IMG/VR virus record: IMGVR_UViG_3300011115_000874
Coordinates: 62,001 to 126,000 of that record
Source of the DNA: a virus
Reading direction: 5' to 3' (one strand)
Length of the DNA: 64,000 bases
Part shown: one piece after another, positions 4,721-49,590 of the stretch
How the letters are laid out: every line of letters begins with the position of its first letter
How positions within the stretch are numbered: the stretch's first letter is position 1
Notes under the pieces: generated by a model
Databases searched by the model: none
What the model saw: the letters and a program-made list of their open reading frames with translations, nothing else
Told to the model about the DNA's origin: nothing
Made by a program: the position numbers and the translations under genes

Positions 4721-5019
4721 ATTTCCTTTTCGTATTTAGTATGTGGATAAAAATCTACACAATAAACTTTTACTCGCTCCAACTCTAATCCACCATTGAA
4801 ATCATCTACTTCATAGACATGATGTCCTTCAAGTTCATCTGGGTATTTACTATTAAATGGTACCCATTCAACATATGTAACTTTACTATCTGTTCCTATT
4901 CCATAGTATTCATCTATACCTGCTTTGAGATCCTCTTCTGTATGAGCAGTTGCTATTGGCTTTCCCCATTGAGATAATGCCACATATGTTACTTTAATGT
5001 ATGTTCTTGTTTGTGTCAT
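4717..5019 (-). CDS. unknown protein (100 aa)
   Basis: Not recognised. It looks beta-rich (TYIKVTYVALSQWGKP, ERVKVYCVDFYP) without cysteine clusters. It overlaps the end of the phosphoesterase gene by 4 nt (ATGA) and is thus probably co-translated with it. Confidence 0.65.
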   Translation of the reverse strand: MTQTRTYIKVTYVALSQWGKPIATAHTEEDLKAGIDEYYGIGTDSKVTYVEWVPFNSKYPDELEGHHVYEVDDFNGGLELERVKVYCVDFYPHTKYEKEI

Positions 5020-5669
5020 ATTAATCGTTTTTCGTGATGATCTTTTGGTAATGTTAGTTTAGCAATTGGTCTAGATACCATTTTAATTAATATATCATCC
5101 ATTTCAATTGGCTCCAAATCATTTCCATCAACTCCTACATCCATTGCTTTACCAGCCGCCATTCTTAAATGTTTAGGTAGGTGAACGTGTCCATGTAAAT
5201 GTATTGCTCCATCATTCATTCCATTCCAACTTGCAATTGGATAGTGCATACAAATAAAATGTGCTCGGTCTTTTTTCTTACCTGCAATCCACCAACTAAC
5301 ATCTAAATCTAAGTAGTGGTTTACTGAACTGAATATTAACTGTATGTCGTCTCTATTTTTTTCAATGTGCCCATCATGGTTACCAAGTACTAAATGTACA
5401 TTTTGACATACAATTCTATCTCTAAATTCCTTAATACTCTCAAATCCACCAAATGACCAATCACCTAAGTGAATTAAGATATCATCTTGTTGAACATACT
5501 TGTTGATGTTAGATACTAATGTTTCATTCATTTTTTGTAATGAACTAAAATCACGAGTAACCGAGTCAGCATCTGTCCAACGTGTAGTTGCTCTACATAT
5601 GTTAGTGTGGTTGTAGTGGGTATCACTTGTGAACCATAATCGTTGATGTTGTTTTAATTCTATTTTCAT
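5016..5669 (-). CDS. calcineurin-like metallophosphoesterase
   Basis: A dinuclear-metal phosphoesterase, about 217 aa. Motifs in order: SDTHYNH, LGDWSFGG, LGNHDGH, MHYPIAS and HGHVHLP, covering the metal ligands of the family. I start it at ATG 5669 (MKIELKQ); six more codons upstream would only translate the promoter. It lies just downstream of the RNA ligase and polynucleotide kinase genes. In bacterial Pnkp this phosphatase type is joined to a kinase and a ligase domain, so an RNA end-healing role is a reasonable inference. A general nucleotide phosphatase is the alternative. Confidence 0.9.
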   Translation of the reverse strand: MKIELKQHQRLWFTSDTHYNHTNICRATTRWTDADSVTRDFSSLQKMNETLVSNINKYVQQDDILIHLGDWSFGGFESIKEFRDRIVCQNVHLVLGNHDGHIEKNRDDIQLIFSSVNHYLDLDVSWWIAGKKKDRAHFICMHYPIASWNGMNDGAIHLHGHVHLPKHLRMAAGKAMDVGVDGNDLEPIEMDDILIKMVSRPIAKLTLPKDHHEKRLI

Positions 5670-5677
5670 AATACCTA

Positions 5678-5707
5678 AATATAACAAGAAAAGGCCCGAA
5701 GGCCAAA
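5678..5707 (-). promoter_or_regulatory. promoter fused to a TTCG hairpin, for the phosphoesterase
   Basis: TTTGGC-N18-TATATT. The perfect hairpin GGCC-TTCG-GGCC (5693-5704) includes the GGC of the -33 box and can terminate the RNA ligase mRNA. The TATATT box is only 8 nt from ATG 5669. Confidence 0.8.
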
Positions 5708-5709
5708 CC

Positions 5710-6843
5710 TTAGTGTGAATCTCCTACATCATGTTTCTCACTATAGATCAAATAATCAGGATTAATTACTTTAGCTACTTTTTCTCTTTGTCCACTCACA
5801 TGTTTAATTACAATACCTTCGTGTGGCACTTTAGTACCTTCAATAAAATTATTGAATGTGAATTTATCCTGCATTTCCTGAGACCATGATGCTACAAGTA
5901 ACTCAGGTACGTGTGGTAATGATAATCCAGCATTTATAATATGTCTTGTTCTAATTGTATTCTGGTACTCGCCATTGATCGTAATATCAAACCCAGCAAA
6001 CTCTAACTCTTTCAACCCATAATCATAATTCTTTTGGATACCAGGGCCATATACTTCACCATACAATACAATACCAGATCCTACTTCTTCAAAAATGCTT
6101 AAGTCAACTGATTTTACAAAATGCCATAATTTGTTTTTGATATCGTACTTATCAGCAATTGTTCTCCATACGTCTGTGTCGTAGAAACCTTGAGTATCAG
6201 ATCCTTTCTCTACGTTATGTGAACCATAAACATACTCGTATTCAATCCATTTATCAGCCAAACGTAAGAACTTCTTACACTTATCCCAAAACGATAATTT
6301 ATGTTTCTTAACAATACCATAACGAGCATTTGTACCATGCATCTTACGGGTGATCTGTACGTTATCTTTTTCACTAAACATCCCAGTTACATTCTTGATG
6401 TTAGGGAATTTATGGTACACTGTGAAGTTAGGATTGTCTTTATATTTAATCTTACGACCTCCAGCTAATTGTACTTGACGTACTGGTGGTTCATATTTGA
6501 AGATACCTAACAATTCCATTACATCTGTTCCCTCGACACGTTTAACACCTTGAACATACGTTAAAGGTATAATCAAGCACTCAGAATATACTCCTCTCAA
6601 CTTAACAGTACGTACACGTTGACCCTTACGTAAGTAATTGGTTACGTTCATTGCGTCTGAAAGTTCTTGAGGTATGACCGCGTCTGTAGTTGCTACAACT
6701 ACTAAGTCATCTACCTTGTACTCTCCCTTCTTGATAATACAATTCCATCCACCGATAACACCTTGTTCGATATTATCAGCTCCAGGTATTTCTTTAATTT
6801 CATTTACACGTGCTACATAGCACACTGAGTTATTATTTTCCAT
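5710..6843 (-). CDS. RNA ligase, Rnl5 / DRB0094 type
   Basis: An ATP-dependent RNA ligase of 377 aa. An N-terminal OB-like domain (about 1-120) precedes the nucleotidyltransferase domain: motif I KMHGTN with the adenylated lysine (about 165), VLYGEVYG (motif IIIa) and EGIVIKH (motif IV); KVINPDYL near the end resembles motif V. The N-terminal domain and order match the Deinococcus DRB0094 family, which seals nicks with a 3'-OH RNA end. It follows the kinase gene by 1 nt. Probable job: repair of cleaved tRNA or mRNA. Confidence 0.9.
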   Translation of the reverse strand: MENNNSVCYVARVNEIKEIPGADNIEQGVIGGWNCIIKKGEYKVDDLVVVATTDAVIPQELSDAMNVTNYLRKGQRVRTVKLRGVYSECLIIPLTYVQGVKRVEGTDVMELLGIFKYEPPVRQVQLAGGRKIKYKDNPNFTVYHKFPNIKNVTGMFSEKDNVQITRKMHGTNARYGIVKKHKLSFWDKCKKFLRLADKWIEYEYVYGSHNVEKGSDTQGFYDTDVWRTIADKYDIKNKLWHFVKSVDLSIFEEVGSGIVLYGEVYGPGIQKNYDYGLKELEFAGFDITINGEYQNTIRTRHIINAGLSLPHVPELLVASWSQEMQDKFTFNNFIEGTKVPHEGIVIKHVSGQREKVAKVINPDYLIYSEKHDVGDSH

Positions 6844-6844
6844 A

Positions 6845-7228
6845 TTATAACTTTATTTCAAAACGGTTTCGCATTTGTTCTATCTTATCATCTGGGCATC
6901 CGTGGATGTTTTTACCATCATGTCTATTCTCTACTATAAGGCAAGATGTTTGATACCCATACTTCTCAGCCAATTCAAAGTAAGCATCCATTTCCCATTC
7001 TTGAGTGAATGTATTAGCAACTACAATCATACCTAACCCATCTTCCATGGAGTGTTCAACACGTAGTTTGCACCAATTATGTGCTTGTTTAAGCTTCGAA
7101 GCATCAAACTTATATTCACCATCTCGCATAAAATATTGATCCGCTTCAAACATATAACAGCCTAATGACTTAGCTAGTGTTGATTTACCCGATCCAGGTA
7201 ATCCTCTTAATAATATTAATTGTTTCAT
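6845..7228 (-). CDS. polynucleotide kinase-like P-loop kinase
   Basis: A single-domain kinase (127 aa). Walker A GLPGSGKST at about residue 9, then FEADQYF and LKQAHNWC, typical of the AAA_33/PseT-N4BP2L kinase group that phosphorylates 5'-OH ends. The phosphatase domain of T4 Pnkp is missing. The start is ATG 7228; the longer frame reads through the promoter. It is first in the unit with the RNA ligase. Confidence 0.85.
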   Translation of the reverse strand: MKQLILLRGLPGSGKSTLAKSLGCYMFEADQYFMRDGEYKFDASKLKQAHNWCKLRVEHSMEDGLGMIVVANTFTQEWEMDAYFELAEKYGYQTSCLIVENRHDGKNIHGCPDDKIEQMRNRFEIKL

Positions 7229-7236
7229 AATGACTA

Positions 7237-7266
7237 AATATAACAAGAAATGATCTAGAAGCCAAA
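7237..7266 (-). promoter_or_regulatory. promoter for kinase and RNA ligase
   Basis: TTTGGC-N18-TATATT, 8 nt before ATG 7228, so the mRNA is probably leaderless or nearly so. Confidence 0.75.
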
Positions 7267-7267
7267 C

Positions 7268-7504
7268 TTAATCTTCATCATCGTCATCACCATATGGTGC
7301 TTCGTTCCATGTTTTGAATTGGTCGGCGCGTTCAATTTCTTCCCATGACCATTCATCTATTTCTTCCTCGTCTTTATATTTACTTATAATTTCAATTATA
7401 TGATGAGGTTTTAATGTGTGTCCACTATATATAACTCCACACAATTCTTTTTCAATTTCTTCTAATAAACTATTCTTATCCATTGGTTGTTGTGTATTCA
7501 CCAT
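7268..7504 (-). CDS. acidic unknown protein (78 aa)
   Basis: Not recognised. The helical N-terminus and very acidic tail (PYGDDDDED) stand out. ATG 7504 overlaps the preceding gene by 29 nt; ATG 7483 (MDKNSLLEE) is an alternative start with a shorter overlap. Confidence 0.65.
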   Translation of the reverse strand: MVNTQQPMDKNSLLEEIEKELCGVIYSGHTLKPHHIIEIISKYKDEEEIDEWSWEEIERADQFKTWNEAPYGDDDDED

Positions 7505-8426
7505 TATCTCTTAATTCGTATCCTATTGTTTCACTCTCTTCTCCTGTTACTGGGTTGGCTGTGATACCATATCTATCAGCTAATTCTCTAAGACTATAAC
7601 TTAAACTTGGTCTTTCTTTAAATCGATCATTATTAATTTCTTTAATATCATCATTACATAAATCATAATTTGTTTTCTTACAATTTCTTAAATCATTAAT
7701 TATAACATCTAAGACATGAGATGGTAAGTTAGATTCTGTTGAGTCAATTCTATCATCTACTTCATTCCAAAATGATGTTTCACGACTATGATCTTCATCT
7801 AAGTTTTTAAACGCAGCTACTTTAGCACCTGTTTTTTTACTCATAGTGTAAATCAAGATACCTCGTCTAGTATAATTGTGGTATTGGTATTCTTCACTTG
7901 TTGAGGCGGTGCACCATTTAGTTCCTGCTCCATACTTACAAGACGATTCATATGTTAATGGTTTAACCACTAACCACTCATCATCTTCATAAATTTTTAA
8001 AACAAATTTCTCTAAATCTTTATTAATCATCTTCAACTCAGCAACTGAGATCGCAGCCATTACTTCGTCTAATGATTTGTATGATGTAATGTCTTTATTA
8101 TCAATTAAATTTCTTTCATTTAATTCAACAAATCTATTCACCTCCATAAGAGTATTATCATTAACACTATCTAATGCGTCAGTGACCGCTACTAAAGTAG
8201 GTAATGGTAATTGTTTAACAAATTCTTCTTTAAAACCCATATCCACTAAAGTAGTAGTGTAACTATTTTTAATGTGGTCTTTATGAATCCGTTTATGAAA
8301 ATTTTGTTTATGTAGATTGAGTGTTAACTCAACATACTTAGTTTTTTCAAATAGAATGCTGAGTGCATCTATTACCCCTATATTCATGTTGGGGTTTTGT
8401 TCTTTTAATGTGCTTAATTTACTCAT
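7476..8426 (-). CDS. GTKWCTA-motif protein of unknown function (316 aa)
   Basis: The central segment holds YGAGTKWCTASTS (about residues 165-178) followed by a beta-rich region (RRGILIYTMSK, KVAAFKNLDED). I recall similar G-x-x-T-x-W-C-T-A proteins from other large phages and plasmids, all uncharacterised. The conserved Cys with nearby His and Tyr could be an active site, but that is speculation. The N-terminal 130 residues look helical. It is transcribed from promoter 8433-8462. Confidence 0.8.
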   Translation of the reverse strand: MSKLSTLKEQNPNMNIGVIDALSILFEKTKYVELTLNLHKQNFHKRIHKDHIKNSYTTTLVDMGFKEEFVKQLPLPTLVAVTDALDSVNDNTLMEVNRFVELNERNLIDNKDITSYKSLDEVMAAISVAELKMINKDLEKFVLKIYEDDEWLVVKPLTYESSCKYGAGTKWCTASTSEEYQYHNYTRRGILIYTMSKKTGAKVAAFKNLDEDHSRETSFWNEVDDRIDSTESNLPSHVLDVIINDLRNCKKTNYDLCNDDIKEINNDRFKERPSLSYSLRELADRYGITANPVTGEESETIGYELRDNGEYTTTNG

Positions 8427-8591: not shown

Positions 8592-8815
8592 AAAAATAAT
8601 CTTTTAATAATTTCCCATTTTGATTTAAACTCTATTTTCTCAAACTTACCATTTACATTCACAACCCAAGCAAACATACTCTCACTCCAACGTTTGTAAG
8701 TACAATGTCTACATACTAAGTTCTTACCTTGATGTTGAGGTCGTTGGTATGGTCTAGGATTAGTTGTGAACATAAATAATGGATATATTCGTTTACAGTC
8801 AAAGCATTTTTTCAT
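8588..8815 (-). CDS. small zinc-ribbon protein (75 aa)
   Basis: It has two CxxC pairs, CFDC near residue 4 and CRHC near residue 35, the spacing of a zinc ribbon. The rest is basic and aromatic. Nucleic-acid binding is likely by class. It overlaps the DNA ligase stop region by 4 nt (ATGA). Confidence 0.7.
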   Translation of the reverse strand: MKKCFDCKRIYPLFMFTTNPRPYQRPQHQGKNLVCRHCTYKRWSESMFAWVVNVNGKFEKIEFKSKWEIIKRLFL

Positions 8816-9906
8816 TCGTAACTTTCTCTATCAATATTAATAACATATGGAAATCTTGGAACACCATCTGGTGTTAGATTAAAATACTTAACTGTAGCTG
8901 ATTTGCCAATCAATTCTTGTTTTTGTTTCCAAAGTTCTTTACATTCATCCCAACTATACTTAGGTGATGAATTGAATATATGACCTGTTTTACTTCTAAA
9001 TACAAATGAACCTACCATTCCTGTTTTATTACCTTCACCTTCAACTACATCTAAAATAGTATATTCTTCATCTATAAATGATTTATGTTTAAGTAATGAT
9101 TTAGAACGTTTTGATTCATATTCTTTATCTAAGCGAATCATTTGACCTTCATAACCTTGATTAACATACTCACTATACAAATCTATTAATAAACTCTCAT
9201 CTATAACAAAATGAGTATCTACTCGTTTACAACATTTAGGTAAATCTAAACTATATAATGTTTCAGATCGTTTACTAAACACCCCACTACAACTAGGTAA
9301 ATCATAAATGTGATATTGAATTTGTTCTTTACTTTTTTCTAAATCATCACTTGTTGGTTTAGTTTTTTTAACTAATGAACAAATAGCATTAAAGTCATTT
9401 GCAAACTTATCGGCATAAAGTTCTCCATCAAATATCAAATCAGGATTAGATTCAAATAATGGTTTCATTGCTTCATAAATGTGAGGTGCTGAAACTATTT
9501 TCTTACCATTTCTACTCCACATACCATCTGCTCTAACAATACATCTAATACCATCTAATTTAGGTTGTGAGTAAACAGGATAAATAATTTTATCTTTATA
9601 GTCTTCAAATTTATGAGCTAACATTGGATTGAAGAACTTAGGTGTATCAATATCACTTATTGATTCATAACTACCTAACTCTAATTTTTTAGTCCACATC
9701 GCTTGAGCCTCAGCTAATGCTTGTTGTTCAGGTGTTGTTTCATTTTTCTTACCAATGTTCTTACCAGAACAACAAGTCCATTCAGAAGTTGTTTTAACTC
9801 CATCATTGTAACCTGATATTGTTCTGAAACAGTTGTTTTCTACTTCAACGGTCCATTCATTGATTTTACCGTTTACTGCTCTTTTATATAATGTGTTTAA
9901 TTTCAT
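8812..9906 (-). CDS. ATP-dependent DNA ligase
   Basis: 364 aa. Nick sealing in DNA replication and repair. Motif I is QPKLDGIR with the AMP-accepting lysine (about residue 117); IFDGELY (motif III), EGQMIRL (motif IV) and LLKHKSF (motif V) follow, then an OB domain. The N-terminal 90 residues (INEWTVEV, YNDGVKTTSEWT) look like a WGR-type domain. It is much smaller than T4 gp30 and closer to short phage and viral ligases. Confidence 0.92.
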   Translation of the reverse strand: MKLNTLYKRAVNGKINEWTVEVENNCFRTISGYNDGVKTTSEWTCCSGKNIGKKNETTPEQQALAEAQAMWTKKLELGSYESISDIDTPKFFNPMLAHKFEDYKDKIIYPVYSQPKLDGIRCIVRADGMWSRNGKKIVSAPHIYEAMKPLFESNPDLIFDGELYADKFANDFNAICSLVKKTKPTSDDLEKSKEQIQYHIYDLPSCSGVFSKRSETLYSLDLPKCCKRVDTHFVIDESLLIDLYSEYVNQGYEGQMIRLDKEYESKRSKSLLKHKSFIDEEYTILDVVEGEGNKTGMVGSFVFRSKTGHIFNSSPKYSWDECKELWKQKQELIGKSATVKYFNLTPDGVPRFPYVINIDRESYE

Positions 9907-9912
9907 AGACTA

Positions 9913-9942
9913 AATATAACAAAGAATGGCCCGAAGGCCAAA
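9913..9942 (-). promoter_or_regulatory. promoter fused to a TTCG hairpin, for the DNA ligase
   Basis: TTTGGC-N18-TATATT with GGCC-TTCG-GGCC at 9928-9939. Only 6 nt separate TATATT from ATG 9906. Confidence 0.8.
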
Positions 9943-11762: not shown

Positions 11763-11953
11763 CTTGATTCCACTTTTATTTGTTTTGCTTCTTCTTTATC
11801 TAATATAAATGCTAGGCCTGAACCTACAGCCACTAATAATGAGTTGTCATTAACGTGGCATACTTTGATTTCACCCCCATTACTAAATCTATTATCAATT
11901 GTCTCGATAACATTATAGACTCTAGGATATATCGTTACTTCACTTAACTTCAT
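11759..11953 (-). CDS. unknown small protein (64 aa)
   Basis: Not recognised. It is beta-rich (GEIKVCHVNDNSLLVAVGSG). It overlaps both neighbours by 4 nt (ATGA type), so it belongs to the phosphatase-lipoprotein-lysis transcript. Confidence 0.65.
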   Translation of the reverse strand: MKLSEVTIYPRVYNVIETIDNRFSNGGEIKVCHVNDNSLLVAVGSGLAFILDKEEAKQIKVESR

Positions 11954-12678
11954 AATATAGTTGGGTAATCACCTATTTTAAACTCTCCATCTTCATAAAC
12001 CAAAAACTTATTTGAAGTATCAAATGTATCAATAAAATAATATTTCCCACCAGTTGATTTACCTTCAATATCAATCTTTTTAACATGAGTATGACCTACT
12101 ACTTGAATATAATCTTCTTTCAAGAATGTATCTCGATTACCAGCCATTAATGCTTGAGGACGAATCCAAATTGGTGTTTGTGTTTTAGAATTACCATATG
12201 GGTCAATTCCATAAAACATAAACTTATTAGGTTGATACTCCCAAATAGCGTTTACAAAATCAGCTATTGTACCTGAATCTACTCCTGGTTCATATTTGTT
12301 TTGATATGTTAACCAATCACTTCCAATACCCGCATGTGTAAACAAGATATTATCTAATTGGTAACACATTTGTAGGTGGTGTTTATTTTCTTGAAGTAAC
12401 TGTCGGATTGCAGGTGCAGCACCTGCTTTATATCCTGAGTATGTCTCACCACCTGGGTAGTAATGATAATCATGATTACCAACTAACATAATTACCTCAC
12501 ACTCACCTTTCTCTTTAAACTCAATTATCTCTTTAAAGTTAAACATTTGCTCAGCAGGGCCAATATCAAAACTATCAAAGTAATCTCCTATAAAGATAAC
12601 TCGATCTGCTTGTTCTTGGAACACAATGTCTTTCCAAACATTGCGTCCATGAATATCTCCTAATACTATTGTTTTCAT
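11950..12678 (-). CDS. PPP-type protein/nucleotide phosphatase
   Basis: A metallophosphatase of 242 aa with the PPP order GDIHGR, GDYFDS, LVGNHDYH, THAGI and VGHTH. It resembles bacteriophage lambda protein phosphatase-type Ser/Thr phosphatases, though symmetric Ap4A hydrolases share these motifs. It lies in an overlapping gene chain leading to the lysis genes. Substrate unknown. Confidence 0.88.
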   Translation of the reverse strand: MKTIVLGDIHGRNVWKDIVFQEQADRVIFIGDYFDSFDIGPAEQMFNFKEIIEFKEKGECEVIMLVGNHDYHYYPGGETYSGYKAGAAPAIRQLLQENKHHLQMCYQLDNILFTHAGIGSDWLTYQNKYEPGVDSGTIADFVNAIWEYQPNKFMFYGIDPYGNSKTQTPIWIRPQALMAGNRDTFLKEDYIQVVGHTHVKKIDIEGKSTGGKYYFIDTFDTSNKFLVYEDGEFKIGDYPTIL

Positions 12679-13568: not shown

Positions 13569-13600
13569 AATATAATAAAAATAGGCCCGAAGGCCTATTT
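13569..13600 (-). terminator. complete terminator overlapping a degenerate promoter
   Basis: AAATAGGCC-TTCG-GGCCTATTTTTAT forms a 9-bp stem with a T-rich tail, ending the 13623-14159 gene. A TATATT box stands at the usual position (13569-13574), but the -33 element reads TAGGC instead of TTGGC. This shows that the TTCG hairpins are terminators. Confidence 0.8.
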
Positions 13601-20141: not shown

Positions 20142-21317
20142 TTATAATTTAATAAGAGTATCCTGATATTCATCCATTGAATTGATAGTAATTTTTAAAT
20201 TACTTAATTCAAATGAACCTACCTCACCATTATCTTTAATTATATCTAATAACTGTTGAATATATTGGAAATTATTTTGATTTAATTGAGTAGCATTAAA
20301 TGATACTAATATTTCATTTTGTTTTTCATTATCATAAGGTTTAACTCGTTCACAAAGATCAAATGATGTATTTAATTGTTCTCTTTTAATATATTGTTCA
20401 TAATCACAATCTACATACATAGTTGAACACCATGGTTCTAAAACTTCTAATAATGGTAAATTACAATTTTTAATTATAAAACCAACATCATATTTTGATG
20501 ACACAATTGGAAATTGATATTCATCATATTTTGGGGGTGTACCCCACTTACGAATAAATTCTCTTGTTTGATTATGAGCTAATTTATTCCAATCATTTGA
20601 TTTATGATTTAAGTCTGATGTTTTAGAAGCGTGTTCAAATTGTCCTCCCCTACATGTTAAATGATAAACTAATGCTTCCCAACTTTGAATTAAGTCACAT
20701 CCATTTAATAAAAATCTATTAAATAAGTCTCTATCCTCACTATGTGATTTCATAATAGGATCATGTCCACCTACATCATTAAAATCATCTTTATGAATCA
20801 ACCAAGGAGCAAATATTCCATTTGTAGTTATATCTTTTCTATTATTTTCTACAAATTCATTAAATTTATCTACTTTAAAACCATCTATAATATCTGTCTC
20901 AGGCCATAAACCTAAGTCTAATACTACTTTAGCTGGGTCAGAAGGATGTAATGGTGGCTCAATTCTAGTAGCTGATACTATAGTTTTAGGTTTCCAATTA
21001 TTATATAATGCTACGTCAAATCCCTTACCCATAATCATATCAGCATGATATATAACTACAAAGTCAGTGTCTGATTTTTCAACTAATAAATTATAAGCAT
21101 TACCTATACCAAATAATTCTTTAGATGGGTTTTTAATATATTTTATATTATTATCAATACACCATTTTTCAGTTCCATCATTATCAGCATCAACGAATAC
21201 TAATACATCATGGTCTCTAATTGAGTTTTCTTTTATATAAAAAACAGCATGTTTTAAATACCTCAAATTATTTTTTGAGGTAATACAAAATGTAAATTTA
21301 GGTATATTATTTTCCAT
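20142..21317 (-). CDS. GT2-family glycosyltransferase (391 aa)
   Basis: The N-terminal GT-A fold starts TFCITSKNNLRYLKHAV, with the nucleotide-sugar/metal site near VIYHADMIMG, and acceptor-side residues SHSEDRDLFNRFL. The C-terminal 130 residues are not recognised and may be a second domain. I use ATG 21317 (MENNIPKF); ATG 21326 is possible. It is the last gene of the glycan cluster. Confidence 0.8.
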   Translation of the reverse strand: MENNIPKFTFCITSKNNLRYLKHAVFYIKENSIRDHDVLVFVDADNDGTEKWCIDNNIKYIKNPSKELFGIGNAYNLLVEKSDTDFVVIYHADMIMGKGFDVALYNNWKPKTIVSATRIEPPLHPSDPAKVVLDLGLWPETDIIDGFKVDKFNEFVENNRKDITTNGIFAPWLIHKDDFNDVGGHDPIMKSHSEDRDLFNRFLLNGCDLIQSWEALVYHLTCRGGQFEHASKTSDLNHKSNDWNKLAHNQTREFIRKWGTPPKYDEYQFPIVSSKYDVGFIIKNCNLPLLEVLEPWCSTMYVDCDYEQYIKREQLNTSFDLCERVKPYDNEKQNEILVSFNATQLNQNNFQYIQQLLDIIKDNGEVGSFELSNLKITINSMDEYQDTLIKL

Positions 21318-21996
21318 CAACACCATCAATTATATGTCTATCCCAACCTATATGAGTAATATATGTCTCTAAAAATCTCATAGCAATCATTCCTTGTTTA
21401 GCATACTCAACTGAGATATCACATTCTAAAGTAACACCTCCACTTTGTTCAGCAGGAGTAATTCGTTCACATCCATTATAACCATTAGGTAATTTTTTCC
21501 AATCACTTAATCGCTTTAAGCCTGGGTTGAGACTGAATCCATTCCATACACCTGTATATTCTAATAATACACATTTAAGTCCATCTAATTCATATACATC
21601 TGGTTTCCATGGGTGGGGAGCTGTAGTGTCATCTATTCCTCTTAACCATACTTGTAATATGTTTGAATCTGCTTCTAATATTTTCATTGAATCTTCAATA
21701 AATTCTTTTTTAAGAAACAACCAATCTTCTTCCATATGGAAAATATACTCAGTATCAACTAATGAGTAAACATAATCTATAGATTTAATTTGATATAATT
21801 TAGGATTATTATATATTAATTCTATAGGGAATTCATATTTATCCTTCACAAAATTATTACACCCAAAATTCATTCCATCATCTATAATAATAAAACGTTT
21901 TAATGGATATGTATTCATTTCAAAAAAACTATCTAAAGTTTTCTCTAATAAATCAGCTCTATTACAAGCTGTCAAAACTACTGTTACTTCTTTCAT
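21307..21996 (-). CDS. GT2-like glycosyltransferase (229 aa)
   Basis: EVTVVLTACNRADLLEKTLDS is a classical GT2 N-terminus; HMEEDW replaces the usual DxD. It lacks a membrane segment. It overlaps the next gene by about 11 nt and the previous by 35 nt, pointing to strict co-translation. Confidence 0.8.
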   Translation of the reverse strand: MKEVTVVLTACNRADLLEKTLDSFFEMNTYPLKRFIIIDDGMNFGCNNFVKDKYEFPIELIYNNPKLYQIKSIDYVYSLVDTEYIFHMEEDWLFLKKEFIEDSMKILEADSNILQVWLRGIDDTTAPHPWKPDVYELDGLKCVLLEYTGVWNGFSLNPGLKRLSDWKKLPNGYNGCERITPAEQSGGVTLECDISVEYAKQGMIAMRFLETYITHIGWDRHIIDGVDGK

Positions 21997-22873
21997 AAAA
22001 TTTATTTATTTCTATTGGAAAATTCTCATGAGCTATTTTAGTAAACTCATTTTTCTTACTTATACTTGATATATATTTTTTAATAGTTTCATTAGGTCGG
22101 TGAGTATAACTTTCACCTATTATATGATTTTCTAATACAAATTGAAATACATCTTTTCCTTTTTGTCTTAAAATATTACAACACTCAGTCACATATGTGT
22201 CTTCTAAACCATAATGTCCTAAAGACTCAGGTATATTAGTTTTAATTAAAAGATCTTTAGAAATTAAAGTAAACCACCCACCCGCAAATTTAAATGTAGG
22301 GATTGGTTTTACTTCTATTTCCCCAACATCAGGTAAAGTATCTTTATACACATCTGCTACTAATTCATAATCTAAAGGATGATTTAAAAATGCTTTATTA
22401 ACAATTACATCCCAAGTGTTGTCCCATTGTTTTACAAACTGAGGTGTAAGAACAAACATATCAATATTTGATTCTTTAATTGTTTGGTAAGCTGAGGTCA
22501 TGTAACTTAAAGTAGTATCTTTAAATATAAAATCACAATCCAACCATATAAAGAAATCAGCATCACTATTATTTTGTAGACTATATCTTCTTTGAGATAC
22601 ACATCCAAGTATATCTTCATCACCCCATATTAGGGTCCATTCACACCAATCTAAAAACTTAGTAACTAACTCTTCAGTTCTTTCTTTAATATACTCTTTA
22701 GGTAATTTAGTCTCACTCCAATTAGTTAATTCATCAGACAAACACATAGTAATTTCTACTTTGTATTTAGTTGTGTTATCAAGGTAAATAGAATTTCTTT
22801 TTAGATTATATAATGTTAAAGCTAAATCCTCTAATTCTTGGGGTAAAGCAAATATAGTTATAACTCCTTTCAT
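21962..22873 (-). CDS. glycosyltransferase with DCD motif (303 aa)
   Basis: A GT-A-like protein: FIWLDCDFIF (about 105-115) is the DxD site, and FKFAGGWFTLISKDLL with HYGLEDTYV matches the acceptor/base region of GT2 enzymes. The first 60 residues differ from standard GT2. Confidence 0.75.
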   Translation of the reverse strand: MKGVITIFALPQELEDLALTLYNLKRNSIYLDNTTKYKVEITMCLSDELTNWSETKLPKEYIKERTEELVTKFLDWCEWTLIWGDEDILGCVSQRRYSLQNNSDADFFIWLDCDFIFKDTTLSYMTSAYQTIKESNIDMFVLTPQFVKQWDNTWDVIVNKAFLNHPLDYELVADVYKDTLPDVGEIEVKPIPTFKFAGGWFTLISKDLLIKTNIPESLGHYGLEDTYVTECCNILRQKGKDVFQFVLENHIIGESYTHRPNETIKKYISSISKKNEFTKIAHENFPIEINKFYERSNSSFDSL

Positions 22874-22874
22874 A

Positions 22875-23588
22875 TTATCTAATTAACCCAACGTCTGATT
22901 TTTCCTCTAATGTAGGTATTATTTTTATTTTAATACTGTTTTTTACTAAATGCCATTTTAGTAAGTATTCATTTCTAAGTGGAGAGTCTTGTCCTGGCCA
23001 TCCACCAAATAATGAGTGGAATAAATCAACATCATCTGTAACATATGATATAACATTTGAAAATACTTCTGAGTATACTATCATATCTTGTTGTTTACCT
23101 ATTGCAAACACATCATAGTATCCTCTGTCTTTAACTCTAATATCTGTATTCCACTCTGGTAATATAATACCTTCTTGTGGTAACTCCAAATTAAATTTAG
23201 AGTAATCTATATCAAATCTTGTTCTGATAATATAATCATATTCTTCCTCAACTAATTGGATTGATTTATATATTGAATAAAACATACTTAAACTATTATT
23301 CAGAGGTTGTCTCCAAATAGGACATTTAATTCCACTAGCGTCAAACACTATAGGTTTTTCTACAATATATTTTTTAGGATTATATAATTGAATAAGATCA
23401 TTATAATCACTATCTGTTAATGAATATTGATTATTTCCAAATCCAAAGTTAGTTGACTCAAAATTAGGAGTTTTCCAAGTATGAAAGTATACATCACAAT
23501 CATGTTTATCTAAAAAATATGTTTTTAGACTATCATAACTTTGTTTAAAATTTCTTGCTTGACCACTTATACAAATAGCTATTTTCAT
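22875..23588 (-). CDS. LPS-type glycosyltransferase-like protein (237 aa)
   Basis: It starts KIAICISGQARNFKQSYDSL and has IIRTRFDIDYS (DxD). This SGQ-R / RxRxD pattern occurs in surface-glycan gene clusters. It abuts the next gene by one nucleotide. Donor and acceptor unknown. Confidence 0.7.
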   Translation of the reverse strand: MKIAICISGQARNFKQSYDSLKTYFLDKHDCDVYFHTWKTPNFESTNFGFGNNQYSLTDSDYNDLIQLYNPKKYIVEKPIVFDASGIKCPIWRQPLNNSLSMFYSIYKSIQLVEEEYDYIIRTRFDIDYSKFNLELPQEGIILPEWNTDIRVKDRGYYDVFAIGKQQDMIVYSEVFSNVISYVTDDVDLFHSLFGGWPGQDSPLRNEYLLKWHLVKNSIKIKIIPTLEEKSDVGLIR

Positions 23589-24025
23589 TACTTATAATTT
23601 TGAATATAATCACTACATACCCCCAAACATTGAGAGATATCATCATTATGTATCTCAGGCATAACTGCTATACTATCTTTAATAGGTTGTTTACCTGGGT
23701 AGACCCATATATATTTCTTTGAAGTTAAAGTTAATGTATCTTCCTGATGCCAGAAATAATTTATTTGGGGATAATTTTCTTGTAAGTAAATTAAAGCTTC
23801 TGGGTTTTTACAGTGTACCCATATTCTATAAAGATATTGAGTTAACCATGAATCACTTATTAAGTATTGAGGTTCATCATGACCTAGATATAATTTATCT
23901 TCTATAACCCAAAAATCAATCTCAACATCAAATCCTTTATATAATGCTTCTTGAAGATATGATGGTGAATTCTCTTTTTTAGGGTTAGGACCTATCAAAT
24001 TTCCTCTATGAGATATTAGTTTCAT
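23588..24025 (-). CDS. short glycerophosphodiesterase-like protein (145 aa)
   Basis: LISHRGN, KENSPSYLQ, FDVEIDFWV and YLGHDEP correspond to the first metal and catalytic motifs of the GDPD TIM barrel. The family is usually near 240 aa, so this is about half a barrel. It may be a minimal enzyme that removes or adds a glycerophosphate decoration, or an inactive relative. Confidence 0.7.
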   Translation of the reverse strand: MKLISHRGNLIGPNPKKENSPSYLQEALYKGFDVEIDFWVIEDKLYLGHDEPQYLISDSWLTQYLYRIWVHCKNPEALIYLQENYPQINYFWHQEDTLTLTSKKYIWVYPGKQPIKDSIAVMPEIHNDDISQCLGVCSDYIQNYK

Positions 24026-24027
24026 AA

Positions 24028-24888
24028 TTAATATTTTTCTCCAATATATAATTTACGTTCATCACCTCGGTCTTCCAATCTATTCTCAGAAATAATTTCA
24101 TGAAACATATGAATACCATATGCTTTATGTTCTCCACTAAACCATACTCCACTTTGTTTTAAACCATAAAATAAATTATGAGGTCCACCCCAAGTTGAGT
24201 TCATATCAAATACTTGGGGATGATAAGCTATCTCTCTTCCTAACTCTAATATATCATTAGTTATAACATGTAAATTAAAATCATGGATATAATTGTGAGA
24301 TACATAATTTATAGATGAATGATAATCCATTTCCCCATTAGGTGAAACTTCATTAAGAGGTAAAGCATTATTATAGTTATCTCCTCCTCTATAATATGTC
24401 TCAAAATCTGAAGGTTGGAATTCAGATAAGTCTAATTTAGTTAGAATAGTATCATAACTAATCTTCTGTTTTGCTCCCAATGTTGGAAGTGACCACATAC
24501 ATTTAGGAGTATTATGTTTTAAAAATACACTATTGAAATTATTTGAAACACAGTAATCTGATTTTAACCAGAGTATTTTACCTGGTATGTTTTGTAATTC
24601 TAAAGATAATCCTATATCAAACCAATTTCTTATATCCTGTAGTAAATTCTTTTTATTAATCTCAGGATCATAAGGAAATATTAAAATGTCTTTAACATAG
24701 TTTTTAACATCGTATTTTTTAATTAATTCAATAATATTATCATTAGATAATTCATGTTCATGGGTATTATATATAACAAAATTATCCCATATAATATTAC
24801 TTGTTTGAAGGGATAATAATGCTTTTAAACTATAATCAGTATGTTTTAAATCTAAAGTAGTATGAGTTGTAAATATACAAGTATTCAT
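24028..24888 (-). CDS. putative glycosyltransferase (286 aa)
   Basis: No clear family motif, but the context, size and a short KILWLKSDYCVS segment (an SDY in place of DxD) suggest a GT-A enzyme. GEHKAYGIHMFHE near the C-terminus is conserved-looking. Function inferred from position in the cluster. Confidence 0.55.
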   Translation of the reverse strand: MNTCIFTTHTTLDLKHTDYSLKALLSLQTSNIIWDNFVIYNTHEHELSNDNIIELIKKYDVKNYVKDILIFPYDPEINKKNLLQDIRNWFDIGLSLELQNIPGKILWLKSDYCVSNNFNSVFLKHNTPKCMWSLPTLGAKQKISYDTILTKLDLSEFQPSDFETYYRGGDNYNNALPLNEVSPNGEMDYHSSINYVSHNYIHDFNLHVITNDILELGREIAYHPQVFDMNSTWGGPHNLFYGLKQSGVWFSGEHKAYGIHMFHEIISENRLEDRGDERKLYIGEKY

Positions 24889-24889
24889 C

Positions 24890-25507
24890 TTAACTAATTA
24901 ATTTACGATATGTGTCAGCGTCTATATTTTTTCTTTCATTAAATATTTCCAACCCACTTGTTTGCTCTGATTCACCTCCCATAACCCATCCTTCTATAGC
25001 ATAGTTATGTTTACCAGCTTGTTTAATTTTATCAAACATCCAATTATCTCCATAATGTATTTTTAACTCATGAGGAATTGGTATATAAGAATTTTTATGT
25101 ATAAAAAATAAACAAGCGTAACATGCCATTAAACTACCAAATTCCTCAACTCTAAACTCACCTTGAGGATTATCCCAACATTTATTTCCAGCACCAATAA
25201 TTCCTCTATCTTCTGTTATATAAGGATAAACTAAATTAATTACACTCCAATCTGTTTCAACATCATCATTAACAATTAATATTTTATCATATTTTGCTAA
25301 TGATACCCCTTTATTCCAAGCTGGGGTAACAAATATATTTTCAGATTCTTTAATATGATTTAATTTAGGTATGTAAGATATATCTATATCTTGAGGAGCA
25401 TTATCAATTAAGATAATCTCTCCCACTAATTCATTATTAGAAATTTGAATTAATCTATCTATAAATCCTTCAGATTTCCATAGGGTAGGTATAACAACTG
25501 ATATCAT
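24890..25507 (-). CDS. GT2-family glycosyltransferase (205 aa)
   Basis: ISVVIPTLWKSEGFIDRLI and KILIVNDDVETDW (DxD-like NDD) are GT2 signatures. It is shorter than usual at the C-terminus, so it is a minimal catalytic domain. Confidence 0.82.
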   Translation of the reverse strand: MISVVIPTLWKSEGFIDRLIQISNNELVGEIILIDNAPQDIDISYIPKLNHIKESENIFVTPAWNKGVSLAKYDKILIVNDDVETDWSVINLVYPYITEDRGIIGAGNKCWDNPQGEFRVEEFGSLMACYACLFFIHKNSYIPIPHELKIHYGDNWMFDKIKQAGKHNYAIEGWVMGGESEQTSGLEIFNERKNIDADTYRKLIS

Positions 25508-25510
25508 ATT

Positions 25511-26080
25511 TTATTTTTTAAATCCGTAAAAGAATAAATCACAATGGTTTGTTTCTACTTCAAATTCATACTTTTTAAAGTTAGCATCAATGTCTATACA
25601 CTCTCTGATATCTTCTTCAGTTAAATTTTTATAGTATTCATTATCCCAATTTTCTCTAGACACATTAGGCATTGTTTTCCAATTTGGAAATTTTTCTTTA
25701 CCTTCATCTTCTAATGATTTTACTCCATGAACTGGTCTTCCAGTTGTAGCGCATGTAAATAAAAGCATACCACCAGGCTTAAGCATTCTAACAGCGTTTT
25801 GGATTGTTTCTTTGTAGTATGGGTTATGTTCAAAACATTCACATGATATAATAACATCAAATGTATTATCAGGTGCATCATAATCTTGAGCAGGACATAC
25901 TATATCTACTCCAGGGCCAGGACCTAAATCTAATCCTGAGTAGTCACAGTTTTCAAAATATACATCTTCTGTACCGCAGACATTAAATGTACCTATTCCT
26001 AATACTTTTTTGTTGTTAAAATAATTAGGAAACGTTACCTTAATTTTATTAACATAATTGATTTGTTCTTTATGAGCCAT
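25511..26080 (-). CDS. class I SAM-dependent methyltransferase (189 aa)
   Basis: VLGIGTFNVCG is motif I, LDLGPGPGVDIV motif II, FDVIISCECFEH motif IV and MLKPGGMLLF motif V. It is of the small Methyltransf_11 type common in O-antigen clusters, so a sugar O-methylation (for example chain capping) is likely. Confidence 0.85.
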   Translation of the reverse strand: MAHKEQINYVNKIKVTFPNYFNNKKVLGIGTFNVCGTEDVYFENCDYSGLDLGPGPGVDIVCPAQDYDAPDNTFDVIISCECFEHNPYYKETIQNAVRMLKPGGMLLFTCATTGRPVHGVKSLEDEGKEKFPNWKTMPNVSRENWDNEYYKNLTEEDIRECIDIDANFKKYEFEVETNHCDLFFYGFKK

Positions 26081-26083
26081 AAT

Positions 26084-27436
26084 TTATTTATAATTTTCTA
26101 AATAGTTTTTTAAATCTTCAGGAGTTCCTAACCCCCACATTCCCTTAACATTAAATGTTCTAATTTGTTTAGAGTCTTTAATTGCTTGATTAAACACAGG
26201 ACAAACATAAAATTCATTACTCACACGAATGTTTTCCTCAATCATTTCCTCAGCATACTTAACAAAATCAGATCCATGTTTCCAATAATAATATCCTACT
26301 GTCGCAATATCTGATATTGGATTCTTTTCAGCTACCTCAGTTACTAATCCTTTCTCATCTATTTTAGCAAATGACCATTTTGGATGTGTAGCTGTGAATG
26401 TGACTATACCTCCATCAGCTTCAGTTTCATTCATTTTATACATGAACTCATTACTATCCCATTCAACAAACTGATCTGAGTTAGCGAAGAAGAGTGGATT
26501 ACCGTTGTCAATATATTCTTTAGCCAATAATGCAGTGCACGCAGCACCTTCGGTTAAACCATCTGTTTCCACTATTTTACACCCAGGAGTTAATAGGTTT
26601 AATAATGTATCTAAATTATATTTTTCACGGTGTGATTTTTGCACAACATATATATAATTTGCTTCTAGATTTAAGTTTTCAATTACAACTTGAATCATAG
26701 GTTTATTTTTAACTTCAATAAGAGGTTTAGGGAATGTATACCCTGCTTGTTCAAATCTAGAACCAGCACCAGCCATTGGAATCAAAACATTAAGTTTCTC
26801 ATCTTTCCATTTAGGTGTCATATTTATTTTTTCTTTATTTAAATGTTTATAGATATTATTATAATTAACTTCTTTTGGAGAGCCAACTCTCATTACATTA
26901 GCTTTACTTCTACTTGCTGCTAATAATCCATATGGTGAATCTTCAACAATTAAAGTTTCCTCAGGTAAATACCCCATTCTACTCATCGCCTTCCAATACA
27001 TTTCAGGATGTGGTTTACTATTCTTAACATCTTCATTTGATAATATTAAATCAAAACGATCAATAATATCAAACTTAGATAATACTGTTAGTACAGTTTT
27101 ACGAATACTATTTGAACATACTGCTAATTTGTATCCATTATTAATTAACATATCCATACAGACTTGCAATTGAGGACTGGGTTGTAAATTAGATAGTGCT
27201 TCTAAAGTATATTTTTGTTTATTGTCCCAAATTTGTTTATGACTCTTAATAGGCAAGTTTTTTCTTTCAGTTAACATATCTAACTTTTGATTTGTCTTTA
27301 AACCATCATAAACTGATAGATGCTCATCCCAAGATATAGAGTATTTTTCCCCTAATGCTTTATTTAAAGCATCATAATGTATTTGTTTTGCTTCTACTAA
27401 TACACCATCTAAATCAAATATAACTAATTTTATCAT
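26084..27436 (-). CDS. HAD phosphatase / sugar nucleotidyltransferase fusion (450 aa)
   Basis: Residues 1-200 are a HAD hydrolase (VIFDLDGVLVE nucleophile, VCSNSIRK, KPHPEMYWKA, VEDSPYGLLAA), close to beta-phosphoglucomutase. Residues 215-450 are an NTP-transferase (LIPMAGAGSRF, FPKPLIEV, FFANSDQFVEW). The two activities could make and activate a sugar phosphate in one chain. The fusion order (HAD first) is unusual to me. It overlaps the next gene by 4 nt. Confidence 0.88.
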   Translation of the reverse strand: MIKLVIFDLDGVLVEAKQIHYDALNKALGEKYSISWDEHLSVYDGLKTNQKLDMLTERKNLPIKSHKQIWDNKQKYTLEALSNLQPSPQLQVCMDMLINNGYKLAVCSNSIRKTVLTVLSKFDIIDRFDLILSNEDVKNSKPHPEMYWKAMSRMGYLPEETLIVEDSPYGLLAASRSKANVMRVGSPKEVNYNNIYKHLNKEKINMTPKWKDEKLNVLIPMAGAGSRFEQAGYTFPKPLIEVKNKPMIQVVIENLNLEANYIYVVQKSHREKYNLDTLLNLLTPGCKIVETDGLTEGAACTALLAKEYIDNGNPLFFANSDQFVEWDSNEFMYKMNETEADGGIVTFTATHPKWSFAKIDEKGLVTEVAEKNPISDIATVGYYYWKHGSDFVKYAEEMIEENIRVSNEFYVCPVFNQAIKDSKQIRTFNVKGMWGLGTPEDLKNYLENYK

Positions 27437-28278
27437 ATATTATTCAATTGACATATTTCTTTTATTGTGCTTACTATTCTAGGAAGATATTCATTATATT
27501 GTAAAGCTAATTGGAAATTTTCCTCCATAACTTCTTTTTTAGATTCATAAAATTCAGGGGTTAGATTATTAACAATTGATATTAATTCATCTACTGTTTC
27601 AAATGTGATAACACCTTCCATATTAAAATATTCTCCTAAATTTGGACATCCCCAATAAATTGGTAAGGTTCTAGTTAGAAAAGCATCTGTAATTTTTTCT
27701 GTGAAGTAATTTTTATGTCTAGTATTTTCAACACCTATATGGAACATACTTTCCCAACATATGTCCTTTCCATTTTCCCATGGATGTTTATCTTCTGTAG
27801 AGTAAATAAAATTAGTTGGTATAGTGATTTTATCAACATTATTAAAGATATTATGTCTTAAAAAATGTCCTTCAACTAAATACTTTTTACCACATAGAAA
27901 TGAAATATTAAACTTTTTATTATCAATAAATTCTGGGTAACGAGTTTCTGGTATAAGTGCATTTTCGTCCCAGAATCTACAGTATCTATTAGACATACCA
28001 TATGGTAGTAAAATTGAGTTAGGGCATGAGTTTAATATATCTTCATTCCAAGTTAATATACAACTAAAAGCTTGATGATTAATTTTAGCCCAATCATGTA
28101 AACCAAATATTTCATTTGGTTCAGATAATATTAAAAAGTTATATGGGTTTTGACTTATATCATGTTGGGAACAAGGATAATCATTAAATAAACTAATAGG
28201 TTTATCCTTTAAATACTCATCACCATTCATATAATGATCAAACATTTCTATAGGCATGTAATGGCACTTAATATACAT
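27433..28278 (-). CDS. GT10 fucosyltransferase-like enzyme (281 aa)
   Basis: FHIGVENTRHKNYFTEKI, DAFLTRTLPIYWGCP is the donor-binding block of alpha-1,3-fucosyltransferases (GT10). The N-terminal acceptor half is short. GDP-fucose precursors could come from the GDP-mannose dehydratase at 29369. It may build a fucose-type or related branch on a phage or host glycan. Confidence 0.82.
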   Translation of the reverse strand: MYIKCHYMPIEMFDHYMNGDEYLKDKPISLFNDYPCSQHDISQNPYNFLILSEPNEIFGLHDWAKINHQAFSCILTWNEDILNSCPNSILLPYGMSNRYCRFWDENALIPETRYPEFIDNKKFNISFLCGKKYLVEGHFLRHNIFNNVDKITIPTNFIYSTEDKHPWENGKDICWESMFHIGVENTRHKNYFTEKITDAFLTRTLPIYWGCPNLGEYFNMEGVITFETVDELISIVNNLTPEFYESKKEVMEENFQLALQYNEYLPRIVSTIKEICQLNNI

Positions 28279-28280
28279 TG

Positions 28281-28901
28281 TTATAAGGTATTATAGAAAC
28301 TATTTTGTGATTCTTGTTTTGATATATGTTTATGATGATATAAAGAATATTCTTCCTCTTCAGGTAAATAGGCATATGTTTTATATCCATCTAATACTTC
28401 ATGTAACTTATTTATCCACTTAATATCAGGAGTATTCTTATATATTCTCCATTGATGGTCAGGCCATTGTATCCATCCTTTATCATTTTGTTTCCATCCC
28501 CAAGCTTGTATATGTTGAGGTGTTATTCCTTCCACAGTATTAACTCTAGGAGTTAGAATAATATCAGTTTCTGATTCAGATAATACTTCTGGTAGTATTG
28601 AAATTAGTTCTTTGTTAGGTAATTCATCAGCATCAATTTGAAAGATATAATCACCAGAACACATTCCATTTAATTCATTTTTCCAATCAGCAAAATGACC
28701 TTGGAATGTACTTTCTTTTAAGATAATAATATTTTTAGATGACCAATAATGTAATTCATCTAACAATTTTTTAGATGCCTTTGGTTTATCTAATAAAACA
28801 CAAATTTCATCTACAAGTCGTTTATGTTGATGAAGGAAATTAAGTAAACAACTTACTTCTTCCAGTTCATTACAAACTGTAATTGCATAACTAATTTTCA
28901 T
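28281..28901 (-). CDS. GT2-like glycosyltransferase (206 aa)
   Basis: ISYAITVCNELEEVSCLLNF, DYIFQIDADELPN (DAD) and WRIYKNTPDIKW are typical of WaaE/KdtX-like GT2 enzymes. It starts at ATG 28901, 7 nt after promoter box 28909-28914. Confidence 0.83.
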   Translation of the reverse strand: MKISYAITVCNELEEVSCLLNFLHQHKRLVDEICVLLDKPKASKKLLDELHYWSSKNIIILKESTFQGHFADWKNELNGMCSGDYIFQIDADELPNKELISILPEVLSESETDIILTPRVNTVEGITPQHIQAWGWKQNDKGWIQWPDHQWRIYKNTPDIKWINKLHEVLDGYKTYAYLPEEEEYSLYHHKHISKQESQNSFYNTL

Positions 28902-28908
28902 ATAACCT

Positions 28909-28938
28909 AATATAATATTACTTTGTCAGTAAGCCAAT
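28909..28938 (-). promoter_or_regulatory. internal promoter of the glycan cluster
   Basis: TTGGC-N18-TATATT, 7 nt before ATG 28901; the TTGGC box lies in the last codons of the upstream gene. It is the only clear TTGGC promoter found inside the 13-kb cluster. Confidence 0.65.
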
Positions 28939-29376
28939 ATAATCTAAAGCTTCTATAAAATCTTTTTCATCAAAATGTTGAAGTGTCTCCATATCCATTC
29001 TATATTCATAAAATTTACCTGGTTGTTTAGGGATTGGGAATTTATGTTTTTCTTCCTCAGTTACAGGAACTGCTTTAACAGCTGACCATTTCCAATTATT
29101 AGCCTCAGCTCCATTAGCAAATACCATACCTTGTTTAGGTTCATTGATAGTCTGTGGTAACCATACTAATTTAGTTTCAGGGTCAGTCCAAGCTAACGCT
29201 TTATATAGTTCTGGAAGTACTTCCATTTGTTCATTATAAAACTCACTTCCCTCTGTCATAAGTGAGTTAGTCCAAAACCCACATGATAATGACATCCAAT
29301 TTGTTATTTCAGGTGTTACTTCTATTTCATAACATAAATTCCCTCCTGATTTAGGGCATGTAATAATTTTATCCAT
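28918..29376 (-). CDS. unknown phage protein (152 aa)
   Basis: It starts DKIITCPKSGGNLCYEIE, with Trp-rich segments (NNWKWSAVKAVPV). I do not recognise a domain; similar short proteins occur in large T4-like phages by my recollection. It lies between two glycan genes and overlaps the dehydratase by 8 nt. Confidence 0.6.
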   Translation of the reverse strand: MDKIITCPKSGGNLCYEIEVTPEITNWMSLSCGFWTNSLMTEGSEFYNEQMEVLPELYKALAWTDPETKLVWLPQTINEPKQGMVFANGAEANNWKWSAVKAVPVTEEEKHKFPIPKQPGKFYEYRMDMETLQHFDEKDFIEALDYIGLLTK

Positions 29377-31646: not shown

Positions 31647-31655
31647 AACTTTATT

Positions 31656-37482: not shown

Positions 37483-37515
37483 AATATAATAAAAAATGGC
37501 CCGAAGGCCAAATTT
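37483..37515 (-). terminator. terminator with embedded promoter, for gp44
   Basis: AATTTGGCC-TTCG-GGCCATTTTTTATT: the hairpin (37498-37509) with a T-run ends the 37538 transcript. TTTGGC-N18-TATATT in the same DNA lies 7 nt before ATG 37475. Confidence 0.85.
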
Positions 37516-46323: not shown

Positions 46324-46330
46324 ATAACCT

Positions 46331-48377: not shown

Positions 48378-48378
48378 A

Positions 48379-49589: not shown

Positions 49590-49590
49590 T

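What the first reader, a model, noticed from the sequence alone, without database searches (positions are those of the whole stretch)
5016..7228. Split kinase, ligase and phosphatase: a three-gene RNA-repair system
A stand-alone 5'-kinase, an Rnl5-type RNA ligase and a calcineurin-type phosphoesterase are adjacent. Bacterial Pnkp has exactly these three activities in one protein; T4 uses a HAD phosphatase instead. The set could repair tRNAs cut by host anticodon nucleases or abortive-infection RNases.
Basis: partly seen in the sequence, partly recalled or inferred. Interest (0 to 1): 0.6.

Follow-up and report, generated by a model that had tools for sequence, protein, structure and literature searches.

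The report
Phage RNA-repair kit in separate genes
A virus that probably infects Bacteroidota carries a kinase, an RNA ligase and a phosphoesterase side by side, a set that recurs across many phages and most likely mends RNA that the host cuts to stop infection; the general idea is already published, and the exact set of parts here is a variant of it.

Summary
In detail: three minus-strand genes at 5016-7228 encode a P-loop kinase of polynucleotide-kinase fold, an RNA ligase with the Rnl5/DRB0094 domain plan, and a calcineurin-like phosphoesterase. The neighbourhood is not chance. In dereplicated viral contigs fetched with the ligase, the kinase lies within 5 kb in 26/34 and the phosphoesterase in 22/34. 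Eighty control loci around UvsX of the same phage group (883 kb) hold none. The ligase slot is exchangeable: Rnl5-type or T4-Rnl1-type, with at least 7 switches on the phosphoesterase tree. Curated RNA-repair families (cREC, Swiss-army-knife HAD) recur in the same loci but never in the control. Escherichia rV5 carries the same kinase and phosphoesterase with Rnl1, cREC and a sirtuin, a layout already published as predicted RNA repair. This is therefore a variant of a known, predicted kind. A second metallophosphoesterase at 11950-12678 scores better against the phage Pnkp-like profile and directly follows the phosphoesterase gene in close relatives. The kinase lacks the counterparts of T4 Pnk Arg38 and Arg126, and its chromosomal relatives stand alone. 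Substrate (RNA end type, tRNA) is inferred, not shown.

The parts
6845..7228 (-). KIN: stand-alone P-loop kinase, 127 aa, phrog_2071 / AAA_33; Walker A GLPGSGKS; D30 aligned with T4 Pnk Asp35, R102 with Arg122
   Evidence: AlphaFold2 model pLDDT 85 with best PDB match T4 Pnk 1ly1, E 1.2e-6, prob 1.00; profile match to T4 Pnk by sequence 6e-5
5710..6843 (-). ATP-dependent RNA ligase of Rnl5/DRB0094 plan: N-terminal OB-like domain + nucleotidyltransferase; motif I K167-xHG, E263, EG342-343, K347, K358
   Evidence: (Naegleria gruberi RNA ligase 9e-18)
5016..5669 (-). PE: calcineurin-like metallophosphoesterase, 217 aa, phrog_547; metal motifs D16-x-H18, GD70, GNHD 96-99, H142, GH-x-H 160-163
   Evidence: AlphaFold2 model pLDDT 92; nearest solved structure Aquifex aq_1665 1xm7, E 7.7e-8
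7235..7266 (-). promoter-like cassette TTTGGC-N17-TTATATTTA, 6 nt before the kinase ATG
5676..5707 (-). promoter-like cassette between ligase stop and PE start; its spacer holds the inverted repeat GGCCTTCGGGCC (5693-5704)
11950..12678 (-). NIN: second metallophosphoesterase, 242 aa, related to NinI/PPP phosphatases; adjacent to PE in close relatives; possible fourth member

Best explanation
The three genes form a split RNA end-healing and sealing module that lets the phage rejoin RNA cut during infection. Proposed steps: (1) a host ribonuclease leaves a 2',3'-cyclic or 3'-phosphate and a 5'-OH [inferred]; (2) the metallophosphoesterase (PE), perhaps helped by the second phosphoesterase at 11950-12678, removes the 3' or 2',3' phosphate to give 3'-OH [inferred]; (3) the polynucleotide-kinase-fold protein phosphorylates the 5'-OH [fold shown by model, activity inferred]; (4) the Rnl5-type ligase adenylates the 5' phosphate and seals it to the 3'-OH [family and motifs shown, substrate inferred]. 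Cut tRNA is the likeliest substrate [inferred].
For: Intact active-site motifs in ligase and PE; kinase fold. Conserved co-localisation: of 34 dereplicated ligase loci, kinase within 5 kb in 26 and PE in 22; of 21 dereplicated PE loci, kinase within 4 kb in 19, ligase in 16, neither in 2; 0 of 80 UvsX control loci. Gene order varies (KIN-Rnl5-PE, PE-KIN-Rnl5, Rnl5-PE-KIN, Rnl1-PE-KIN) while neighbourhood is kept. The ligase slot switches between Rnl5 and T4 Rnl1 types at least 7 times on the PE tree. The same loci carry cREC_REC (27 of 89), HAD_SAK_2 (16) and CCA/polyA-polymerase (11) genes, control 0. Named phages with the same set: Aeromonas PAc, Pseudomonas Pyxpy02, Vibrio Bennett, Limnohabitans DC31, and rV5_ev168 with cREC, SIR2 and tRNA genes. 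In this genome no 2H, SIR2, KptA, cREC or SAK-HAD gene was found, which leaves the two metallophosphoesterases as the obvious 3'-end healers.
Against: No biochemical data for this kinase or PE family were found. The kinase has Phe at the position of T4 Pnk Arg38, Asn at Asp85 and no conserved residue at Arg126. Chromosomal homologues of the kinase stand alone: 77 of 80 genome loci hold no other module gene within the stretch read, up to 10 kb each side, and 10 of 14 genomes tested had no PF09414 ligase match. PE occurs without the others nearby in Flavobacterium phage immuto and does not resemble the Pnkp or T4 phosphatase. A promoter-like cassette separates PE from the kinase-ligase pair.
Confidence: 0.72

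Rival explanations
1. The kinase and ligase repair RNA, but the phosphoesterase is a separate counter-defence or housekeeping enzyme (for example acting on signalling nucleotides) that shares the same genomic island.
For: PE homologues occur without kinase or ligase nearby in some phages; the best structural match is a protein of unknown function; NAD-salvage genes (Prs in 12, NAMPT in 10 of 89 loci) also lie in these islands; a promoter cassette separates PE from the ligase gene.
Against: PE and kinase are often immediately adjacent and their order varies while the link stays; 19 of 21 dereplicated PE loci have the kinase within 4 kb; the pair is kept with either ligase type and in rV5 next to cREC.
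Confidence: 0.2
2. The small kinase is not a 5'-OH polynucleotide kinase but phosphorylates another substrate, and the module's 5'-kinase is missing or supplied by the host.
For: Loss of the T4 Arg38 and Arg126 counterparts; solitary homologues in bacterial chromosomes.
Against: Best fold and profile matches are T4 Pnk and the bacterial Pnkp kinase; 25 of 31 dereplicated kinase loci have an RNA ligase within 5 kb; no other kinase is linked.
Confidence: 0.12
3. The set heals DNA ends or RNA/DNA hybrid nicks during replication or recombination rather than host-cut RNA.
For: Members of the Rnl5 family seal nicks with an RNA 3'-OH strand (from memory); an ATP-dependent DNA ligase is encoded at 8812-9906.
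Against: Interchange with T4 Rnl1-type ligase and linkage to cREC, HAD_SAK and CCA/polyA-polymerase genes point to RNA; the phage already has a DNA ligase.
Confidence: 0.05

Closest known systems
rV5/Mydo-type phage RNA-repair neighbourhood (PMC9503650, section 3.7.3)
   Same: Same kinase and phosphoesterase families next to an ATP-dependent RNA ligase; predicted there to clean and religate cut RNA
   Different: There the ligase is T4 Rnl1-like and sirtuin and cREC genes are present; here the ligase is Rnl5-type and sirtuin and cREC were not found
Bacterial Pnkp (Pnkp/Hen1)
   Same: The three activities proposed: 5'-kinase, metallophosphoesterase-fold phosphatase, ligase
   Different: Three separate proteins, not one; different ligase family; the phosphatase is another branch of the superfamily; Hen1 not looked for
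T4 Pnkp + Rnl1
   Same: Kinase of T4 Pnk fold acting with a separate ligase
   Different: No fused HAD phosphatase; Rnl5 instead of Rnl1; metallophosphoesterase instead of HAD
Capnocytophaga Pnkp1-Rnl-Hen1 (PMC4411300)
   Same: Separate ligase and end-healing proteins that act together in Bacteroidota
   Different: Pnkp1 is a fused T4-like kinase-phosphatase; here kinase and phosphatase are separate and unfused
Naegleria gruberi RNA ligase / Deinococcus DRB0094 (Rnl5)
   Same: N-terminal OB domain plus nucleotidyltransferase with the same motifs
   Different: About 30% identical to the named-phage Rnl5 ligases aligned; scores under the NCBIfam DRB0094 cut-off (103 against 151 bits)

Membership tests
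Rnl5-type RNA ligase | N-terminal OB-like domain followed by a nucleotidyltransferase domain | tested here: met
   PF21189 at residues 10-94 and PF09414 at 161-360
Rnl5-type RNA ligase | Nucleotidyltransferase motifs I, IIIa, IV, V intact | tested here: met
   K167/G170, E263, E342-G343 and K358 invariant in 26 sequences; K347 at least 90% conserved
Rnl5-type RNA ligase | NCBIfam TIGR02306 (DRB0094) over the curated cut-off | tested here: not met
   103.4 bits against 151.15; best family but below the equivalog threshold. So it is called Rnl5-type by domain plan, not a DRB0094 equivalog
Rnl5-type RNA ligase | Requires RNA on the 3'-OH side of the nick | not testable with these tools
   needs enzyme assay
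5'-OH polynucleotide kinase (T4 Pnk/Pnkp) | P-loop fold closest to Pnk among solved structures | tested here: met
   1ly1 E 1.2e-6, 4jt2 E 5.8e-6; profile 6e-5
5'-OH polynucleotide kinase (T4 Pnk/Pnkp) | Lys15, Ser16, Asp35 conserved | tested here: met
   K15 and D30 invariant, S16 at least 90%
5'-OH polynucleotide kinase (T4 Pnk/Pnkp) | Arg38 and Arg126 conserved | tested here: not met
   Phe at the Arg38 position and no conserved residue at Arg126; R102 aligns with Arg122; the importance of these arginines is from memory
Bacterial Pnkp | Kinase, phosphatase and ligase in one chain | tested here: not met
   three ORFs
Bacterial Pnkp | Phosphatase of the Pnkp/NinI branch | tested here: not met
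   PE model: aq_1665 best, no Pnkp among the 50 listed; NIN at 11950 scores better on phrog_8238
Bacterial Pnkp | Hen1 methyltransferase partner | not tested
   not searched for specifically
rV5/Mydo-type RNA-repair neighbourhood | Kinase + phosphoesterase + RNA ligase linked | tested here: met
   same kinase and PE families by HMM in rV5_ev168
rV5/Mydo-type RNA-repair neighbourhood | T4-like (Rnl1) ligase | tested here: not met
   Rnl5-type instead
rV5/Mydo-type RNA-repair neighbourhood | Sirtuin and cREC genes | tested here: not met
   SIR2 search of the genome negative with working controls; cREC HMM negative over all ORFs

The most novel reading that the evidence does not exclude
The phosphoesterase family phrog_547 (aq_1665-like, no known function) is a new class of RNA 3'-end-healing enzyme. 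In this phage group it works with a second metallophosphoesterase (11950-12678), so that two calcineurin-fold enzymes split the 2',3'-cyclic and 3'-phosphate steps in place of HAD, 2H, cREC, sirtuin and KptA.
Probability: 0.35. Interest if true: 0.55.

Novelty: new variant of a known kind. Interest (0 to 1): 0.38.

Why it matters
If right, it assigns a testable function (RNA 3'-end healing) to a phosphoesterase family with matches in more than a thousand phage records, and 5'-end healing to a small kinase with matches in over six hundred. It also shows an RNA-repair kit whose sealing enzyme has been swapped between two ligase types at least seven times while the healing enzymes stayed. Such kits may mark which phages can withstand RNA-cutting host defences.

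Tried and rejected
Phosphoesterase as a Pnkp-type phosphatase: rejected on structure and weak profile score. One simple three-gene operon: not supported because of the promoter-like cassette before PE. A TAnnTTTG box before the starts: no enrichment; the box actually repeated is TTATATTTA. NIN as a Pnkp homologue by profile search of PDB sequences: no meaningful match. Rnl1 (PF09511) in bacterial genomes carrying the solitary kinase: uninformative, the control genomes did not ring. The Pfam cREC and HAD_SAK searches of the own genome also had silent controls, so the session's own HMMs, which ring in relatives, were used instead. The 2016 survey of RNA-repair systems (10.1093/nar/gkw722) is not held and could not be read; it may describe parts of this layout.

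Full report
Observation. The minus strand at 7228-5016 encodes, in order, a 127-aa P-loop kinase, a 377-aa RNA ligase and a 217-aa calcineurin-like phosphoesterase, with gaps of 1 and 40 nt. Pfam and PHROG assignments are clear for all three. The window is part of a 160,798-base virus record, bases 62001-126000. The phage has T4-type replication proteins (clamp loader, UvsX, polymerase, ribonucleotide reductase; recognised by eye). Its closest named relatives by the phosphoesterase infect Flavobacterium and Cellulophaga, so a Bacteroidota host is inferred.

Is it more than chance? Viral contigs were fetched with the ligase, the kinase and the phosphoesterase separately and every locus was scanned with profiles of the families. 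In 34 dereplicated ligase loci with at least 5 kb on each side, the kinase is within 5 kb in 26 and the phosphoesterase in 22, always on the same strand. Of 31 dereplicated kinase loci, 25 have a ligase within 5 kb. Of 21 dereplicated phosphoesterase loci fetched with a broad alignment, 19 have the kinase and 16 a ligase within 4 kb, and 2 have neither. Eighty loci (883 kb) around UvsX of the same phage group hold none of these genes. Order differs between contigs while the neighbourhood stays, a mark of functional linkage rather than of shared ancestry of one segment alone.

The ligase slot. In many contigs and in named phages of Aeromonas, Pseudomonas, Vibrio and Limnohabitans the ligase is of T4 Rnl1 type (PF09511, phrog_562) instead of Rnl5. 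On a tree of the phosphoesterase the ligase type changes at least seven times, with changes inside well-supported pairs. The tree was a quick search with some long branches, so the number is a rough lower bound.

Company kept. In 89 dereplicated module loci, neighbours include the cyclic-phosphate receiver domain cREC_REC (27), the Swiss-army-knife HAD of RNA repair (16), a CCA/polyA-polymerase-like enzyme (11), a third metallophosphoesterase (29), and NAD-salvage genes Prs (12) and NAMPT (10; both named by eye); none occurs in the control loci. Escherichia rV5_ev168 has the same kinase and phosphoesterase next to Rnl1, cREC, a sirtuin and tRNA genes.

What each protein is. Kinase: the AlphaFold2 model (pLDDT 85) matches T4 Pnk best, then the Clostridium Pnkp kinase. 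The aligned residues keep Lys15, Ser16, Asp35 and Arg122 of T4 Pnk but not Arg38, Asp85 or Arg126; the loss of Arg38 and Arg126, essential in T4 Pnk as I remember it, makes the activity less certain. Chromosomal relatives of the kinase stand alone and most of the genomes tested gave no PF09414 ligase match, so the wider family is not tied to RNA ligation. From memory, the eukaryotic N4BP2 kinase domain looks similar; this was not tested here, and PMC6598757 only notes that N4BP2 has a PNK domain. Ligase: OB domain and nucleotidyltransferase motifs intact, nearest solved relative Naegleria gruberi RNA ligase. Phosphoesterase: all metal-binding motifs present; model pLDDT 92; only aq_1665 of unknown function matches well.

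The second phosphoesterase. The gene at 11950-12678 lies on the NinI/PPP side of the superfamily, matches the Pnkp-like phage profile phrog_8238 better than the phosphoesterase does, and overlaps or abuts the phosphoesterase gene in several close relatives (L008, L013, L014, L020, L048, L166-L168). In Vibrio phage Bennett a NinI-type gene sits beside the Rnl1 gene. The NinI gene of Bennett, the kinase of Aeromonas PAc and the Rnl1 ligases of two viral contigs match three successive parts of phrog_8238. In the window the gene is 4.7 kb away, so its membership is a lead only.

By elimination. The genome was read in full and searched for other 3'-end healers: no 2H, SIR2 or KptA (controls rang), no cREC, SAK-HAD or CCA-type gene by the session's own profiles. 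It carries four tRNA genes outside the window.

Prior work. PMC7824862 states that phages pair ATP-dependent RNA ligases with kinases and phosphoesterases and that calcineurin-like enzymes seem to serve as the phosphatase in a few jumbo phages. [quoted passage not shown] The present set is that layout with an Rnl5 ligase and without sirtuin and cREC. It is a new variant of a known, still unproven, kind.

Expression. Both the kinase and the phosphoesterase start 6 nt after a TTATATTTA box with an upstream TTTGGC, a cassette repeated along the window; the one before the phosphoesterase includes a perfect inverted repeat. Kinase and ligase are probably co-transcribed, and the phosphoesterase probably has its own promoter of the same type.

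Noticed in passing
window minus strand, e.g. 5676-5707, 7235-7266, 9919, 37489, 51545: A promoter-like cassette TTTGGC-N17-19-TTATATTTA recurs: 21 TTATATTT[AG] boxes on the minus strand against 3.6 expected, 8 with an ATG within 11 nt against 1.0 expected. The box lies so close to the ATG that mRNAs may be nearly leaderless.
   Followed up: partly
5693-5704, 9928-9939, 13584-13595, 37498-37509, 51554-51565 and others, minus strand: The inverted repeat GGCCTTCGGGCC occurs 9 times with up to 2 mismatches against 0.19 expected, all on the minus strand, mostly inside that cassette; it may act as terminator and promoter spacer at once.
   Followed up: partly
L006, L002, L032, L040, L294, L341: RNA-repair modules lie near Prs and NAMPT genes (NAD salvage) in unrelated phages, suggesting counter-defence islands.
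   Followed up: partly
Genome contigs L349-L425: Homologues of the small kinase stand alone in chromosomes of Vibrio, Flammeovirga, Halomonas and Bacteroidota, with no module gene nearby; function unknown.
   Followed up: partly
45628-49619: Cluster that by eye encodes GTP cyclohydrolase, QueD-, QueE- and QueC-like proteins, suggesting 7-deazaguanine modification of DNA.
   Followed up: no
20142-33092: Long run of glycosyltransferase-like and nucleotide-sugar genes by eye.
   Followed up: no
38587-40203: GroEL-like chaperonin gene in the phage (by eye).
   Followed up: no
7476-8426: 316-aa protein of unknown function just upstream of the kinase (phrog_17056), with related genes near the kinase or ligase in 7 module loci.
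   Followed up: no
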